From a virus: 40,012 bases of DNA. The stretch is from positions 1 to 40,012 of the IMG/VR virus record IMGVR_UViG_3300049617_000031; one strand, 5' to 3'. The notes beneath the pieces were generated by a model. It searched no databases. It was not told the DNA's origin and saw only the letters and a list, made by a program, of their open reading frames with translations. Of the stretch, positions 8,279-40,012 are shown one piece after another (the stretch's first letter is position 1; every line of letters starts with the position of its first letter). A program made the position numbers and the translations under genes.

Positions 8279-8509
8279 TTACGGAGCCTTCGGTGGAGGG
8301 TTTGCAAGCAGCTGCGGTTGCGGGGCGTAGCGCTGCACGAACTGGTACGCCTCAACCCACGCGACAGCTTCCATACCGGTCGACTGCACGCGCCTCAGGA
8401 ACTCCAGCAGGTTGCCAGCTATATGCGGCGGGATCGCTGGCGCTACCTGCTGGATCTGCGGAAGCGTTGCGGTTGCGGTTTCGCCTTGCGGCGTGTTGGG
8501 TTCGTTCAC
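8279..8509 (-). CDS. Small hypothetical protein (76 aa)
   Basis: 76 residues, Pro/Ala/Gln-rich at both ends, with a central helix around AGNLLEFLRRVQSTGMEAVAW. Its stop abuts the start of the membrane-coiled-coil gene and its ATG overlaps the cupin stop by four bases (ATGA-type). No membrane segment or motif recognised. Probably translated with the lysis cassette; function unknown. Confidence 0.6.
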   Translation of the reverse strand: MNEPNTPQGETATATLPQIQQVAPAIPPHIAGNLLEFLRRVQSTGMEAVAWVEAYQFVQRYAPQPQLLANPPPKAP

Positions 8510-8838
8510 GTCACCTCACTATTAGTTATCGCACCAGAGCGCTCGCTATCCGGCAGCCCGCGATAAGACTCCGGCATGCCGTTCAAGAACAGGTTAAGGA
8601 TCACGGCGTTGACCACGGCGCGTATGGTGTGCATCTGCTTGCCGTCGAAATCTACAATATCGCCGAGTGCGTGAAAAGTTGTGCAGCCCGGCGTAATCAG
8701 CTCCACAACACCCTCAAGTACGATGACGTTGTGCGCGGTCTCTTCATCGTGAGAGTGCGTAGGCAAGGCGTCACCTGCCTGCATCTTGTAGAGGATGCCG
8801 AATATTTTTCCAGATTGGTACCAGTGGTATTTAATCAT
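8506..8838 (-). CDS. Cupin-fold small protein
   Basis: 110 residues. Residues 22-43 (GDALPTHSHDEETAHNVIVL, then EG) fit the first cupin motif with metal-ligand candidates His28, His30 and Glu32/Glu33. His70 in GKQMHTIRA fits the second motif. Cupins of this size bind a metal or small sugar and can be isomerases, epimerases or structural proteins. It lies between the Gly-rich tail-tip gene and the lysis genes, overlapping both neighbours by four bases. A role in modifying or stabilising a tail appendage, or in host-polysaccharide chemistry, is possible but only inferred. Confidence 0.65.
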   Translation of the reverse strand: MIKYHWYQSGKIFGILYKMQAGDALPTHSHDEETAHNVIVLEGVVELITPGCTTFHALGDIVDFDGKQMHTIRAVVNAVILNLFLNGMPESYRGLPDSERSGAITNSEVT

Positions 8839-31235: not shown

Positions 31236-31257
31236 ACGTCAAACACAGGAGTTGAAA

Positions 31258-32019
31258 ATGAGCAAGGCACAGACCGACATCCGCACCCTGACCGACGGCA
31301 GCGTCGTCCACATCGACACGCAGAAAATTGCCGACGTTGTAAACCGCATGCACTTGCCGTCGGGGCTTGGCACGCACGAAAACGCTTGCAGCATCGCCGC
31401 AATCAACCTCGCGCTGACGGGTGAACTGACCGACAAGATTCCGGATTGCATGTCGGAAGTGATCGGCCGATGGATCATTAGCACGCAGGACGCGATGCCC
31501 GACTCGATGCGTAATTCGCCAGAATGGAAACGGCTGTTGCCGCTCGCCGCCGGTACTGGCAGAGAGCATGAGAAAGAGCGGCTCGACTTGCTGCTGAATC
31601 ACATGTGGACGGTCGCGCTGCCGTTGATTCAGCCGATAGCTGATGCTCAGGGATTCGGTGCCGAATGGCGCGCTATGCTAGCGGAAAAAAGTAAATCGGC
31701 GGCTGCGAGGGCGGCGACGGTGGCGATGGCTGCGGAGGCGGCGGCGAGGGCTGCGGGGGAGGCGTCGGGGTGGGCTGCGAGGGCGGCGACGGCGGCGGCT
31801 GCGGCGGAGGCGTCGGGGTGGGCGGCGGGGGAGGCGGCGAGGGCGGCGCGGGCGGCGCTGGCGGCGCTGGCGGCGGCGAGGGCTGCGGAGGCGGCGGCGA
31901 GGGCTGCGGGGGAGGCGGCGACGGCGGATGTGACGTGGGAAACACTAAACCCCTGCCAGTTGCTCGCCGACTTGATCGCCGTTGGCTCTGCCCCCAGCGG
32001 AGGATCAGAGCATGAGTGA
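31258..32019 (+). CDS. Alanine-repeat protein, copy A
   Basis: 253 residues from ATG with AGGAG six bases upstream. Residues 20-145 are a globular domain (IPDCMSEVIGRWIISTQDAM, LLPLAAGTGREHEKERLDLL, ADAQGFGAEWRAM). About 80 residues of Ala-rich repeats with Arg, Glu, Gly, Trp spacers follow, then a short end domain WETLNPCQLLADLIA. The next gene is a close paralogue with a different repeat. Similar proteins are widespread in phages from memory, with no known function. The repeat is encoded by GCG/GAG/GGG runs prone to slippage. Confidence 0.75.
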   Translation: MSKAQTDIRTLTDGSVVHIDTQKIADVVNRMHLPSGLGTHENACSIAAINLALTGELTDKIPDCMSEVIGRWIISTQDAMPDSMRNSPEWKRLLPLAAGTGREHEKERLDLLLNHMWTVALPLIQPIADAQGFGAEWRAMLAEKSKSAAARAATVAMAAEAAARAAGEASGWAARAATAAAAAEASGWAAGEAARAARAALAALAAARAAEAAARAAGEAATADVTWETLNPCQLLADLIAVGSAPSGGSEHE

Positions 32020-32704
32020 CAACAAAATGAACACCATCGACACACAGAAAATCGCTGAAGTCGTGAACCGCATGCACCTGCCCATAGGGCTGGGCGATAA
32101 GGAAAATGCTTGCTCCATTGCCGCAATCAACCTCGCGCTGACGGGTGAACTCACCGACAAGATTCCGGACTGCATGTCTGGAGTGATTGGCCGATGGATC
32201 ATTAGCACGCAAGATGCAATGCCCGATGCAATGCGAAACTCACCAGAATGGAAACGGCTGTTGCCGCTCGCTGCCGGTACTGGCAGAGAGCATGAGAAAG
32301 AGCGGATTGACTTGCTGCTGAATCACATGTGGACGGTCGCGCTGCCGTTGATTCAGCCGGTTGCCGACGCGCACGGGTTCGGCGATGAATGGCGCGCTAT
32401 GCTAGCAGAAAAAAGTAAATCGGCGGCAATGGCGGCGGCGGCGGAGGCGGCGGAGGCGGCGGAGGCGGAGGCGGCGGAGGCGGCGGCGGAGGCGGCGGTG
32501 GCGGCGGAGGCGGAGGCGGAGGCGGCGCGGGCGGCGGCGGAGGCGGCGGCGGAGGCGGCGCGGGCGGCGGTGTGGGCTGCGGCGGCGTGGGCTGCGGCGG
32601 AGGCGGCGGGGTGGGCTGCGGCGGAGGCGGCGGGGTGGGAAACACTCAACCCCTGCCAGTTGCTCGCCGACTTGATCGCCGCGGGGGGTAAAGAGCATGA
32701 GTGA
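32012..32704 (+). CDS. Alanine-repeat protein, copy B
   Basis: 230 residues from the ATG eight bases inside the end of copy A, preceded by GGAGG. Residues 10-140 are nearly identical to copy A (ENACSIAAINLALTGELTDK and the next 60 residues). The Ala repeat is shorter and made of AEAA units, with Trp near the end, and the same C-terminal WETLNPCQLLADLIA. Recent tandem duplication with repeat divergence. Low-complexity opposite-strand frames (poly-Pro) here are artefacts. Confidence 0.75.
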   Translation: MSDNKMNTIDTQKIAEVVNRMHLPIGLGDKENACSIAAINLALTGELTDKIPDCMSGVIGRWIISTQDAMPDAMRNSPEWKRLLPLAAGTGREHEKERIDLLLNHMWTVALPLIQPVADAHGFGDEWRAMLAEKSKSAAMAAAAEAAEAAEAEAAEAAAEAAVAAEAEAEAARAAAEAAAEAARAAVWAAAAWAAAEAAGWAAAEAAGWETLNPCQLLADLIAAGGKEHE

Positions 32705-37823: not shown

Positions 37824-37852
37824 TTGACACCCATAGGTACTAGATCTTGATT
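37824..37852 (+). promoter_or_regulatory. Weak promoter-like element
   Basis: Perfect TTGACA at 37824-37829 followed 17 bases later by TTGATT (3 of 6). Lies between the Cys/His gene and the methyltransferase remnant. Could serve the right-end genes. Confidence 0.35.
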
Positions 37853-37909
37853 AACTACTACAACGAAAACGACCCCAAGGCCGCCGCATGGCTGCGGGAT
37901 CGAGTATGA
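37847..37909 (+). pseudogene. Remnant of a phage cytosine-5 DNA methyltransferase start
   Basis: A 20-codon stretch, TTG start then INYYNENDPKAAAWLRDRV and a TGA. The NYYNExDPxAAAWLR signature is the conserved N-terminus of a large family of phage Dcm-like methyltransferases, which I recognise from memory. Nothing of the downstream catalytic domain follows. The next gene starts 28 bases later, so the body of the gene appears deleted and replaced. Confidence 0.6.
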
Positions 37910-37936
37910 CGGGTACTGAAAATGAAGGATCAGAGC

Positions 37937-38155
37937 ATGAGTGACCTAACGCTGTCGGATTATCGGAATGCGGCGCTTGCATCCGCTCGACAAGTAGACG
38001 CGCTCTATATGCGCATCCGCAAGCTTGAGGCTGAGTTGCGGTGGATACACGAAACGAGCCGTAAATCTTTGTTTGAGCGAACGCACCGATCAGCCGCCAA
38101 AGCAGCTCTTGAGGCTTTGTCCGAGATTAACCACAGGATTGCACCTTACAAATGA
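37937..38155 (+). CDS. Small coiled-coil protein (72 aa)
   Basis: 72 residues from the ATG within GGATCAGAGCATGAGTGAC, the same 19 bases found before alanine-repeat copy B; an ATG five codons earlier is possible. LSDYRNAALASARQVDALYM and RIRKLEAELRWIHETS form a helical, probably coiled-coil protein. The stop overlaps the next ATG. Function unknown. Confidence 0.6.
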   Translation: MSDLTLSDYRNAALASARQVDALYMRIRKLEAELRWIHETSRKSLFERTHRSAAKAALEALSEINHRIAPYK

Positions 38156-38895
38156 TCCATTACCACGGTACGCCCATGACCCCTGTTGCGGACATGACCA
38201 AGAGTTTCGCTGCCCGCCACGCTATGGTGAGTTTTGCTCACCCGGAACAGATGGAAATTTGCGCTGAAATTTGTCAATCCGTGGTAATCGACAACGGGGC
38301 ATTTACGGCTTGGAAGCAGGGCAAACCACACGACTTTCAAGGGTATGTTGATTGGTGCCGGAAATGGCTCAAACATCCGGCCGTTGATTGGTGCGTGATC
38401 CCTGATGTAGTTGACGGCAGCGAAGAAGCTAACGACGAGCATCTGTTGCGGTGGCCTTTGCCGGTGCATTATTCGGTGCCGGTCTACCACATGCATGAAT
38501 CCCTTGAGCGGTTAGATCGACTTGCTGCCGAGTACCCCCGAATTGCTTTGGGATCTTCTGGGCAATACGCGGTGATCGGTAATGACGATTGGTGGGCGCG
38601 CATTGCCGACATGATGAACATTCTTTGTGACAAAAACGGGTTTCCAAAAACAAAACTACACGGGCTTCGTATGCTAGATCCCGGCGTGTTTAGTAAGTTG
38701 CCTTTCGCCAGCGCCGACAGTACCAACGTCGCTCGAAATGTAGGCATGGACACTAGATGGAAAGGAACCTACATAACTCAATCTAGAGCAGTGCGGGCTT
38801 TAATTCTAATGGAACGAATTGAGCGGCACGCAAGCGCGTCTTATTGGAGCCGAGAAGCAGTTTCACAGTACCAAAATATGGAGTTACTAGGATGA
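38152..38895 (+). CDS. TGT/DpdA-like base-exchange family protein (putative)
   Basis: 247 residues from ATG overlapping the previous stop. The order of motifs DNGAFTAW (47-54), CVIPDVVDG (81-89), a His pair VYHMHESLERL (113, 115), ALGSSG (132-137), KLHGLRML (168-175) and SADSTN (187-192) is like the TIM barrel of tRNA-guanine transglycosylase, whose Asp nucleophiles and LHG...DS segments occupy similar places. DpdA relatives insert 7-deazaguanine into DNA. The match is visual and moderate. It is followed by a deoxyribosyltransferase-like gene (ATGA overlap), and base composition is less GC-rich than the surroundings. No preQ0 synthesis genes lie in the window. Confidence 0.5.
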   Translation: MIHYHGTPMTPVADMTKSFAARHAMVSFAHPEQMEICAEICQSVVIDNGAFTAWKQGKPHDFQGYVDWCRKWLKHPAVDWCVIPDVVDGSEEANDEHLLRWPLPVHYSVPVYHMHESLERLDRLAAEYPRIALGSSGQYAVIGNDDWWARIADMMNILCDKNGFPKTKLHGLRMLDPGVFSKLPFASADSTNVARNVGMDTRWKGTYITQSRAVRALILMERIERHASASYWSREAVSQYQNMELLG

Positions 38896-39326
38896 ATATT
38901 TATCTTTGTGGGCCGATTAACGGATGCACAGATGCAGAGGCTAACGACTGGAGATCTTCTGTCAAGGCGCGTTTTTCTGGTTGTATTGATCCGATGGTTA
39001 GGGATTACAGGGGAAAAGAAGCGCACGCATATCGGGAGATCGTGGAACTAGACAAGCGCGACGTACGTATGGCCGACATAGTTTTGGTGAACTACGACAA
39101 ACCCAGCGTCGGCACTAGTATGGAGGTTTTTTACGCGTGGACGCTTGGAAAGCCGATTATCGTATGGTCTCGGCCTGATACGGTTATATCTCCTTGGCTG
39201 CGTTACCACTCAACTTGTTTAGTGCATTCAATGGATGAAGTAATTTCCGCAATTGCAAGATGTTCTTGTCCCGCACAAAAGGAAGTCGGCGTCCGCATTG
39301 CCGATTTGCCAGTTCACCATGGCTAG
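38892..39326 (+). CDS. Nucleoside 2-deoxyribosyltransferase-like protein
   Basis: 144 residues from ATG overlapping the previous stop. MNIYLCGPINGCTDAEANDW is the family start (IYLxGP), DP at 33-34 follows, VELDKRDVRMADIVLVNYDK matches the central D..xI..AD.v.vn block, and GTSMEVFYAW (Glu78) is the catalytic region of this family, ending GKPIIVW. Such enzymes swap or remove bases on deoxynucleosides; relatives also act as nucleoside 5-monophosphate hydrolases. The pair with the TGT-like gene suggests nucleotide or DNA-base chemistry. The last 30 residues are Cys-rich and less typical. Confidence 0.75.
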   Translation: MNIYLCGPINGCTDAEANDWRSSVKARFSGCIDPMVRDYRGKEAHAYREIVELDKRDVRMADIVLVNYDKPSVGTSMEVFYAWTLGKPIIVWSRPDTVISPWLRYHSTCLVHSMDEVISAIARCSCPAQKEVGVRIADLPVHHG

Positions 39327-39701: not shown

Positions 39702-40012
39702 AATACGAATTCACGGGAGAAACTAAGGTAGCGCTCGGCGTCACACTCAAACGCATACGTGTGGTGACCGCGTTCGCCGGTCTGGAGATCGGCGCCGTAG
39801 GCGGCTGGATTGCCGACGAAAAGAATTTATCGCAGTTCGACAACGCATGGGTGTTCGACAACGCGCAGGTGTTCGGCGACGCATGGGTGTTCGACAACGC
39901 GCAGGTGTCCGGCGACGCGCAGGTGTCCGGCGACGCATTGGTGTCCGGCAACGCGCGGGTGTTCGGCGACGCATGGGTGTTCGGCAACGCGCGGGTGTCC
40001 GGCGACGCATGG
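39698..40012 (+). CDS. Hexapeptide-repeat protein, partial
   Basis: Starts ATG in an ATGA junction with MKYEFTGETKVALGVTLKRI; runs off the window. From about residue 47 it is a six-residue repeat (NAWVFD, NAQVFG, DAWVFD, NAQVSG, DAQVSG ...), ten units visible. The pattern x-A-x-V-x-G is that of a left-handed beta-helix; in phages such proteins are known only from annotation as repeat or polymer-forming proteins. The 18-base DNA repeat could change length by slippage. Function unknown. Confidence 0.75.
   Translation, partial: MKYEFTGETKVALGVTLKRIRVVTAFAGLEIGAVGGWIADEKNLSQFDNAWVFDNAQVFGDAWVFDNAQVSGDAQVSGDALVSGNARVFGDAWVFGNARVSGDAW

What the first reader, a model, noticed from the sequence alone, without database searches (positions are those of the whole stretch)
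38152..39326. Possible DNA-base modification pair: TGT/DpdA-like protein plus nucleoside deoxyribosyltransferase
The two genes overlap and share a less GC-rich composition unlike the flanking genes, so they probably arrived together. The first has a motif order like tRNA-guanine transglycosylase (DNGAF, PDV, LHG, ADST); the second has the IYLCGP and GTSME motifs of deoxyribosyltransferases. A base exchanger and a deoxynucleoside base-swapping enzyme next to the stump of a cytosine methyltransferase suggests that one DNA-protection system replaced another. No preQ0 synthesis genes are visible, so the modified base, if any, may come from the host or be new.
Basis: inference. Interest (0 to 1): 0.82.

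Follow-up and report, generated by a model that had tools for sequence, protein, structure and literature searches.

The report
Phage two-gene guanine-swapping DNA modification module
This phage carries two overlapping genes, one resembling enzymes that swap guanine in nucleic acid for a modified base and one resembling enzymes that cut or exchange bases on DNA building blocks; the second turns out to be a recurrent, previously unlinked companion of phage DNA-guanine-swapping genes and of the genes that make or import their base.

Summary
Gene A (38152-38895) is predicted to be a TGT-superfamily barrel (best matches Cap10, Z 16.1, and archaeosine TGT, Z 15.3). It is homologous to DpdA of Pantoea phage MED16, whose DNA carries a 7-deazaguanine. 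Gene B (38892-39326) is an NDT-superfamily enzyme. The pair is not a local accident. In 57 of 80 viral contigs found with B alone, a TGT-like gene lies beside it on the same strand, from three PHROG families, in either order, often with a 4-bp ATGA overlap. B also sits in or beside preQ0 synthesis operons (QueD, QueC, QueE, FolE) or a preQ0-transporter gene, unlike random contigs or other phage NDTs. So B is a 7-deazaguanine-pathway accessory enzyme, and A+B is best read as a DNA-guanine modification module. B's active site is a mosaic (transferase proline, no 5'-OH aspartate) reported for DmtZ, a phage dNMP hydrolase/deoxyribose-phosphate transferase. I therefore propose that B moves or frees 7-deazaguanine on deoxynucleotides; activity and direction are untested. 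The methyltransferase 'stump' is a genuine 20-codon match, but 'one system replaced another' is not established. The record ends 686 bp after B, so missing preQ0 genes mean little.

The parts
38152..38895 (+). Gene A: TGT/DpdA-like putative DNA-guanine transglycosylase, 247 aa (PHROG_887); candidate catalytic Asp47 (codon 38290-38292) and Asp189 (codon 38716-38718)
   Evidence: PHROG_887 E 1.2e-68; AF2 pLDDT 85.9, Z 16.1 Cap10, 15.3 ArcTGT, ~14.5 Zymomonas TGT; 36% identity to MED16 DpdA; D47 and D189 invariant in 33 relatives
38892..39326 (+). Gene B: NDT-superfamily putative 7-deazaguanine (deoxy)nucleotide glycosyl enzyme, 144 aa (PHROG_19940); Tyr4, Asp54, Glu78 (codon 39123-39125)
   Evidence: PF05014 41.8 bits, cut-off 28.8; AF2 pLDDT 82.9, best fold matches NDT 7o62 Z 16.4, DNPH1 Z 14.9, MilB Z 14.7; conservation in 93 relatives
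38892..38895 (+). ATGA overlap of the A stop and the B start (likely translational coupling)
   Evidence: sequence; the same kind of junction in 28 of 53 measured pairs in relatives
37922..38155 (+). 77-aa ORF upstream that overlaps A by ATGA; no informative homologue; possible third member of the transcript, membership uncertain
37847..37909 (+). 20-codon fragment resembling the N-terminus of a phage DNA-cytosine methyltransferase (not part of the module)

Best explanation
A and B form a compact 7-deazaguanine DNA-modification module. A binds phage DNA and, as TGT and DpdA do, swaps selected guanines for a 7-deazaguanine base (preQ0 or a derivative such as ADG) supplied by the host's queuosine pathway, by uptake, or by phage genes beyond the truncated record. 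B breaks and can re-form the N-glycosidic bond of a (deoxy)nucleoside 5'-monophosphate through a covalent Glu78 intermediate. Its most likely role is to keep the scarce modified base available to A (releasing it from nucleotides of degraded DNA or tRNA) or to move it onto deoxyribose 5-phosphate as a second, nucleotide-level route, as DmtZ does for 2-aminoadenine. The result would be DNA that some host restriction enzymes cannot cut. Shown here: families, predicted folds, coupling, recurrent pairing and the 7-deazaguanine gene context of relatives. Inferred: DNA as A's substrate, the identity of the base, B's substrate and direction, and the protective role.
For: Fold and homology of A. DpdA-only phage MED16, whose DpdA is a relative of A, has dADG in its DNA (PMC8306585). 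Pairing: B adjacent to A in 19 of 48 A loci. A same-strand TGT-like gene lies within 1.5 kb in 53 of 80 B loci; four more B loci have a PF23859 DpdA there and one a PF01702 TGT (L123). Three PHROG families (887, 15826, 1279) take part. After dereplication 56 of 78 viral B genes have such a neighbour; the tree needs at least 24 changes of partner type and 11 of gene order. 7-Deazaguanine context: B inside preQ0 operons of phages ZHS, Erebus and RHph_X3_2; QueD directly before B-A in a marine clade; QueD or QPTR over cut-off in 14 of 50 B contigs against 0 of 49 other contigs; QueC in 4 of 50; QueD-QueC-FolE2-B-TGT in L123; bacterial B beside QueF in L177. Other phage NDTs lie among thymidylate, NMN-transport and ribonucleotide-reductase genes. 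Active-site mosaic of B matches the description of DmtZ (PMC12884076).
Against: Many phages carry A without B (A in 108 GenBank records against 13 with B, largely different phages; 29 of 48 IMG/VR loci), so B is not essential to A. 22 of 78 dereplicated viral B genes have no TGT-like neighbour in the stretch held, and one clade (L078, L085, L086, L101) lacks it throughout, so B may have another role. The window record has no preQ0 synthesis or transport gene. Foldseek alone ranked only generic TIM barrels, with E not below 2.5e-3, and profile alignment of A with E. coli TGT failed, so residue-level equivalence rests on motif order. DNA of MED16 was modified at only ~0.13% of G with little effect on restriction (PMC8306585). 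No activity was measured.
Confidence: 0.68

Rival explanations
1. B is simply a base-salvage hydrolase (like QueK or Qng1 in queuine salvage): it releases free preQ0, ADG or queuine from nucleotides made by tRNA or DNA breakdown and feeds A; it has no transferase or biosynthetic role.
For: Phages with QPTR transporters and no synthesis genes also carry B; queuine salvage is known to need nucleoside or nucleotide hydrolases of unrelated families (PMC11130926); DNPH1/MilB-like Ser at Glu-6.
Against: The transferase-type proline is invariant in 93 of 93 relatives; the DNPH1 phosphate ligands Ser17 and Arg19 correspond to Pro8 and Asn10 in B; B is also present where the phage makes its own preQ0.
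Confidence: 0.3
2. A modifies tRNA, not DNA: a phage-encoded TGT variant that sets queuosine-type modification of host tRNA during infection.
For: Same superfamily as TGT; PHROG and GenBank label 'queuine tRNA-ribosyltransferase'.
Against: A has no CxCxxC zinc motif of canonical TGT and is ~130 residues shorter; no Pfam TGT match; its relative MED16 DpdA comes from a phage whose DNA carries dADG; phage 9g DpdA did not complement an E. coli tgt mutant (PMC6884629).
Confidence: 0.1
3. A is a Cap10-like protein that binds or handles a 7-deazaguanine-tagged protein rather than nucleic acid, i.e. part of a defence or counter-defence system.
For: The best structural match is Cap10 from type IV CBASS (Z 16.1), a TGT-family enzyme remodelled to bind a modified protein N-terminus (PMC11996544).
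Against: Z is within 1 of ArcTGT; no PADLOC hit for A or B; the partner is an NDT-like enzyme, not CdnD/Cap9; both Asp of the TGT motif order are invariant.
Confidence: 0.05
4. The pair is a chance neighbourhood of two unrelated cargo genes picked up in a low-GC island.
For: Low GC; many phages carry A alone.
Against: Adjacency with three TGT-like families in both orders across divergent phages; no TGT-like or Que gene in 31 random contig stretches.
Confidence: 0.02

Closest known systems
DpdA of Pantoea phage MED16 (DpdA/TGT_1 cluster, PMC8306585)
   Same: Homologous to A over 198 residues at 36% identity with the same motifs; phage has DpdA but no preQ0 genes
   Different: MED16 has no annotated B-like gene beside dpdA; the C-terminal parts differ
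Phage DpdA systems with preQ0 synthesis (9g, CAjan, Rosebush; PMC6884629)
   Same: TGT-like base exchanger; relatives of A and B lie in such operons
   Different: The window record carries no preQ0 gene; an NDT-like partner is not described there, apart from the remark that phages may harbour undetected 2'-deoxyribosyltransferases
DmtZ of Gordonia phage Ghobes / Arthrobacter phage Wayne (PMC12884076)
   Same: Phage NDT-superfamily enzyme in phages with modified DNA; transferase Pro together with a small uncharged residue at Glu-6; a Trp that can align with the lid Trp
   Different: Sequence similarity is very weak (9.4 bits, local); DmtZ has Asn where B has Asp54, acts on dAMP/2-aminoadenine and belongs to PurZ phages
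DNPH1/Rcl and MilB nucleoside-5'-monophosphate N-hydrolases
   Same: Fold (Z 14.9 and 14.7); catalytic Tyr, Asp, Glu; Ser at Glu-6
   Different: B has the transferase-type Pro34 and lacks the Ser17/Arg19 phosphate ligands of Rcl
Cap10 of type IV CBASS (PMC11996544)
   Same: Best structural match of A (Z 16.1)
   Different: No CBASS partners seen; A keeps the TGT-type Asp pair, invariant in its family

Membership tests
DpdA (7-deazaguanine DNA transglycosylase) | TGT-superfamily barrel | tested here: met
   AF2 pLDDT 85.9; Z 16.1 to Cap10, 15.3 ArcTGT, 14-14.6 bacterial TGT over ~220 residues
DpdA (7-deazaguanine DNA transglycosylase) | Homology to a DpdA whose phage DNA is known to be modified | tested here: met
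   MED16 DpdA: BLASTP E 2e-42; A-family profile E 8e-61; also preQ0-operon DpdAs of ZHS and Erebus at 1e-21 and 2e-19
DpdA (7-deazaguanine DNA transglycosylase) | Match to Pfam model PF23859 (DpdA) | tested here: not met
   No Pfam hit for A. MED16, Erebus and ZHS DpdA also miss it, so the model covers one subfamily (PHROG_1279 type). A is not filed as a PF23859 member
DpdA (7-deazaguanine DNA transglycosylase) | Catalytic Asp pair equivalent to TGT Asp102/Asp280 | tested here: inconclusive
   D47 and D189 invariant in 33, motif order matches, but profile alignments with PF23859-type DpdA (15% probability) and E. coli TGT were too weak to prove residue equivalence
DpdA (7-deazaguanine DNA transglycosylase) | Inserts a 7-deazaguanine into DNA | not testable with these tools
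   needs nucleoside mass spectrometry
Canonical bacterial/archaeal TGT (tRNA) | Zn-binding CxCxxC...H motif and C-terminal extension | tested here: not met
   A's sequence holds no CxCxxC and ends ~58 residues after Asp189; no PF01702 hit
Nucleoside 2-deoxyribosyltransferase superfamily (PF05014) | Pfam match over cut-off, and fold | tested here: met
   41.8 bits, cut-off 28.8; Z 16.4 to 7o62
Nucleoside 2-deoxyribosyltransferase (nucleoside-specific NDT) | Asp/Asn six residues before the catalytic Glu (binds the 5'-OH) | tested here: not met
   Ser in 92 of 93 B relatives; Asp in TbNDT and 9183 NDT
NDT transferases | Water-excluding proline | tested here: met
   Pro34 in 93 of 93 relatives, aligned with Pro of TbNDT and 9183 NDT; equivalence to DmtZ Pro57 is inferred
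DNPH1/Rcl N-hydrolase | Phosphate ligands Ser17, Arg19, Ser87 | tested here: not met
   Ser72 matches Ser87; Pro8 and Asn10 replace Ser17 and Arg19 (alignment)
DmtZ | Sequence membership | tested here: inconclusive
   only a 9.4-bit local match around Glu/Trp
DmtZ | dNMP:base deoxyribose-5-phosphate transfer | not testable with these tools
   enzyme assay needed
Type IV CBASS Cap10 | Cap9 and CD-NTase partners | not tested
   PADLOC was searched only with A and B, 0 hits

The most novel reading that the evidence does not exclude
[quoted passage not shown] Phages of this type would then modify guanine at two levels, in the nucleotide pool and by base exchange in DNA. B would be a new, widespread enzyme family of the 7-deazaguanine pathway.
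Probability: 0.33. Interest if true: 0.78.

Novelty: new variant of a known kind. Interest (0 to 1): 0.64.

Why it matters
DpdA-type guanine replacement is a known phage anti-restriction strategy, but many phages have a DpdA and no visible base supply, and how 7-deazaguanines reach some phage DNAs without DpdA is unexplained (PMC6884629). This work links an unannotated NDT-like family (PHROG_19940, 'unknown function') to that pathway by strong, repeated genomic association with several TGT-like families, preQ0 synthesis genes and the preQ0 transporter. It also links an unannotated TGT-like family (PHROG_15826) to the same partner. If confirmed, B is a missing metabolic step and a gene marker for finding modified phage genomes, and its substrate is a direct, simple enzyme assay.

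Tried and rejected
Sequence search of A against the PDB found nothing, single or profile. Foldseek listed only generic TIM barrels; TGTs appeared only in the VIA-align second look. hhalign of A with E. coli TGT failed, and A with PF23859-type DpdA gave 15% probability, so catalytic residues were not mapped by profile. A first control with the Enterococcus 9183 NDT found only two viral loci, so it was replaced by random contigs and by annotated neighbourhoods of other phage NDTs. Near DNA search found no relative of the phage in GenBank for bases 1-25000. The key 2023 paper on phage 7-deazaguanines (PMC10516641) is not in the library, so an earlier mention of B there cannot be excluded. Idea dropped: 'new base', because relatives' contexts point to 7-deazaguanine. 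Idea dropped: chance pairing. Idea not settled: B pulls the exchange by removing released guanine; nothing tested bears on it.

Full report
What is there. The window is a complete IMG/VR virus record of 40012 bases classed as linear, with no completeness estimate. Near its right end three ORFs overlap by ATGA: a 77-aa ORF (37922-38155), gene A (38152-38895, 247 aa) and gene B (38892-39326, 144 aa). A+B is 50.0% GC in a 62.0% GC record; only 6 of 1554 windows of equal length are as low. A 20-codon stump at 37847-37909 resembles the N-terminus of phage cytosine methyltransferases. The record ends 686 bases after B, so gene content beyond is unknown.

What A is. A has no Pfam or NCBIfam match but matches PHROG_887 'queuine tRNA-ribosyltransferase' at 1.2e-68. 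It has relatives in 108 GenBank phage records. An alignment of 33 relatives keeps, among others, D47NGA, P84D85, VPVYHMHE, GSSG, HGLR and A188-D189-S190 invariant. The AlphaFold2 model (pLDDT 85.9, pTM 0.85) gave only generic barrels by Foldseek. Re-alignment by VIA put TGT-superfamily structures on top: Cap10 Z 16.1, archaeosine TGT 15.3, Zymomonas TGT about 14.5, over ~220 residues. A is 36% identical to DpdA of Pantoea phage MED16 (E 2e-42). That phage has DpdA but no preQ0 genes and carries dADG in its DNA at about 0.13% of G (PMC8306585). A profile of A relatives also finds the DpdA genes that lie in full preQ0 operons of phages ZHS and Erebus (1e-21, 2e-19). A lacks the zinc motif of canonical TGT (sequence) and does not match the Pfam DpdA model PF23859, which the MED16, ZHS and Erebus proteins also miss.

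What B is. B matches Nuc_deoxyrib_tr (PF05014) above cut-off. Its model (pLDDT 82.9) resembles NDTs (Z 16.4) and the monophosphate N-glycosidases DNPH1 and MilB (Z 14.9, 14.7). In 93 dereplicated relatives the glutamate Glu78, Trp20-Arg21, Pro34 and Gly74-Thr75 are invariant; Tyr4, Ser72 and Trp102 are kept in 90-92, Asp54 in 88, and a D-Y-R-G-x-E signature (38-43) is typical (numbers there are +2). The residue six before the Glu, an Asp in nucleoside NDTs, is Ser, as in DNPH1 and BlsM; Pro34 aligns with the proline of NDT transferases. The same combination, transferase proline plus a small 5' pocket, was described for DmtZ. DmtZ is a phage enzyme that hydrolyses dAMP and transfers deoxyribose 5-phosphate to 2-aminoadenine (PMC12884076). 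DmtZ itself is only a very weak sequence match, so this is an analogy in active-site design, not shown membership.

The pair is conserved. Of 48 IMG/VR loci found with A, 19 carry B directly before A, in the order opposite to the window. In the converse search B alone recovered 80 loci (one contig, L059, is the contig of L034). In 53 of these a same-strand TGT-like gene lies within 1.5 kb. Four more (L050, L062, L065, L083) have a PF23859 DpdA there, and L123 has a PF01702 TGT. The TGT-like partners belong to PHROG_887, PHROG_15826 (annotated 'unknown function') and PHROG_1279 (PF23859 DpdA). In 78 dereplicated viral B genes, 56 have such a partner, 29 in order B-T and 27 in order T-B. The B tree needs at least 24 changes of partner type and 11 of order (short alignment, many open forks). 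The window's nearest B (L050, 75-78% identical) has a different TGT family beside it. The measured junction is a 4-bp overlap in 28 of 53 pairs (the start nearest the upstream stop was chosen, which favours overlaps). Caveat: the B profile was built from B genes found next to A, so the sampled B clade is not random.

The pathway context. B lies inside preQ0 operons of Edwardsiella phage ZHS (QueC, FolE, TGT, B), Aminobacter phage Erebus (QueE, QueC, QueD, B, FolE, TGT) and Rhizobium phage RHph_X3_2 (QueE, B, QueC, QueD, FolE). A marine clade has QueD-B-A. L123 has QueD-QueC-FolE2-B-TGT. A bacterial contig (L177) has B beside QueF, and another (L171, Cesiribacteraceae) has B-A. By Pfam model over whole contigs, QueD passes its cut-off in 6 of 50 B contigs and the QPTR/YhhQ transporter (PF02592, preQ0/preQ1 carrier; PMC11130926) in 8 others; neither passes in 18 A-only and 31 random contigs. 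QueC is strong in 4 of 50 B contigs and in 1 of the 49 others, with 2 weak hits. Control contigs are on average shorter and some B contigs are near-duplicates, so these counts are indicative. Other phage NDTs sit among thymidylate, NMN-transport or ribonucleotide-reductase genes.

How it most likely works. A exchanges guanine in phage DNA for a 7-deazaguanine. Base supply in this phage would be the host's queuosine pathway or unseen phage genes. B acts on the N-glycosidic bond of a deoxynucleotide, either to free the modified base for A or to place it on deoxyribose 5-phosphate. The association with both synthesis and uptake genes argues that B is not the only source of base. Its presence beside three different TGT-like families argues for a role in the shared chemistry rather than as a subunit of one enzyme. 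The steps from 'DNA substrate' onward are inference. Rivals (pure salvage hydrolase, tRNA modification, Cap10-like protein handling) are listed with tests.

Known or new. DpdA-only phages and dADG are known. HRTV-29 has been reported to carry both DpdA and an NDT-like gene, with NDT listed under pyrimidine metabolism (PMC8651126). In the papers I could search I found no report linking this NDT family to 7-deazaguanine; the main 2023 paper is not held. I rate it a new variant of a known kind: a DpdA-type module with an unrecognised second enzyme.

Noticed in passing
window 39835-40010: Tandem array of 18/36/54-bp units at the very end of the record; in the ORF from 39698 it encodes repeats like NAQVFGDAWVFDNAQVSGDA (beta-helix/hexapeptide-like). 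It runs off the end, which may be why the assembly stopped there.
   Followed up: partly
window 31252-32019 and 31982-32704: Two adjacent ORFs share a long near-identical segment (DTQKIA..VNRMHLP.GLG..ENACSIAAINLALTGELT), a likely tandem duplication.
   Followed up: no
window 8506-8838 (-): A 110-aa cupin-like ORF (HSHDEE...NVIVLEGVVELITPG) on the minus strand.
   Followed up: no
L111, L105, L115, L127, L109, L088, L073, L084 beside B: PHROG_15826 ('unknown function') looks like a TGT-superfamily branch (hhalign 95% with the A family) that also pairs with B.
   Followed up: partly
L078:1415-2374; L085, L086, L101: A well-supported B clade has no TGT-like neighbour; in L078 an IMPDH/GMP-reductase-like gene follows B. 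It may show another use of B.
   Followed up: no
L002, L005, L006, L013, L020-L022: Relatives of A without B often lie near DNA methyltransferase genes of different kinds, as if A occupies a modification-gene site.
   Followed up: partly
GenBank Salmonella phages such as BTP1 and SPN3UB: A relatives at 47-50% identity, annotated hypothetical or queuine tRNA-ribosyltransferase; in BTP1-like phages the match also touches an EaD/Ea22-annotated feature. Candidates for DNA base analysis.
   Followed up: no
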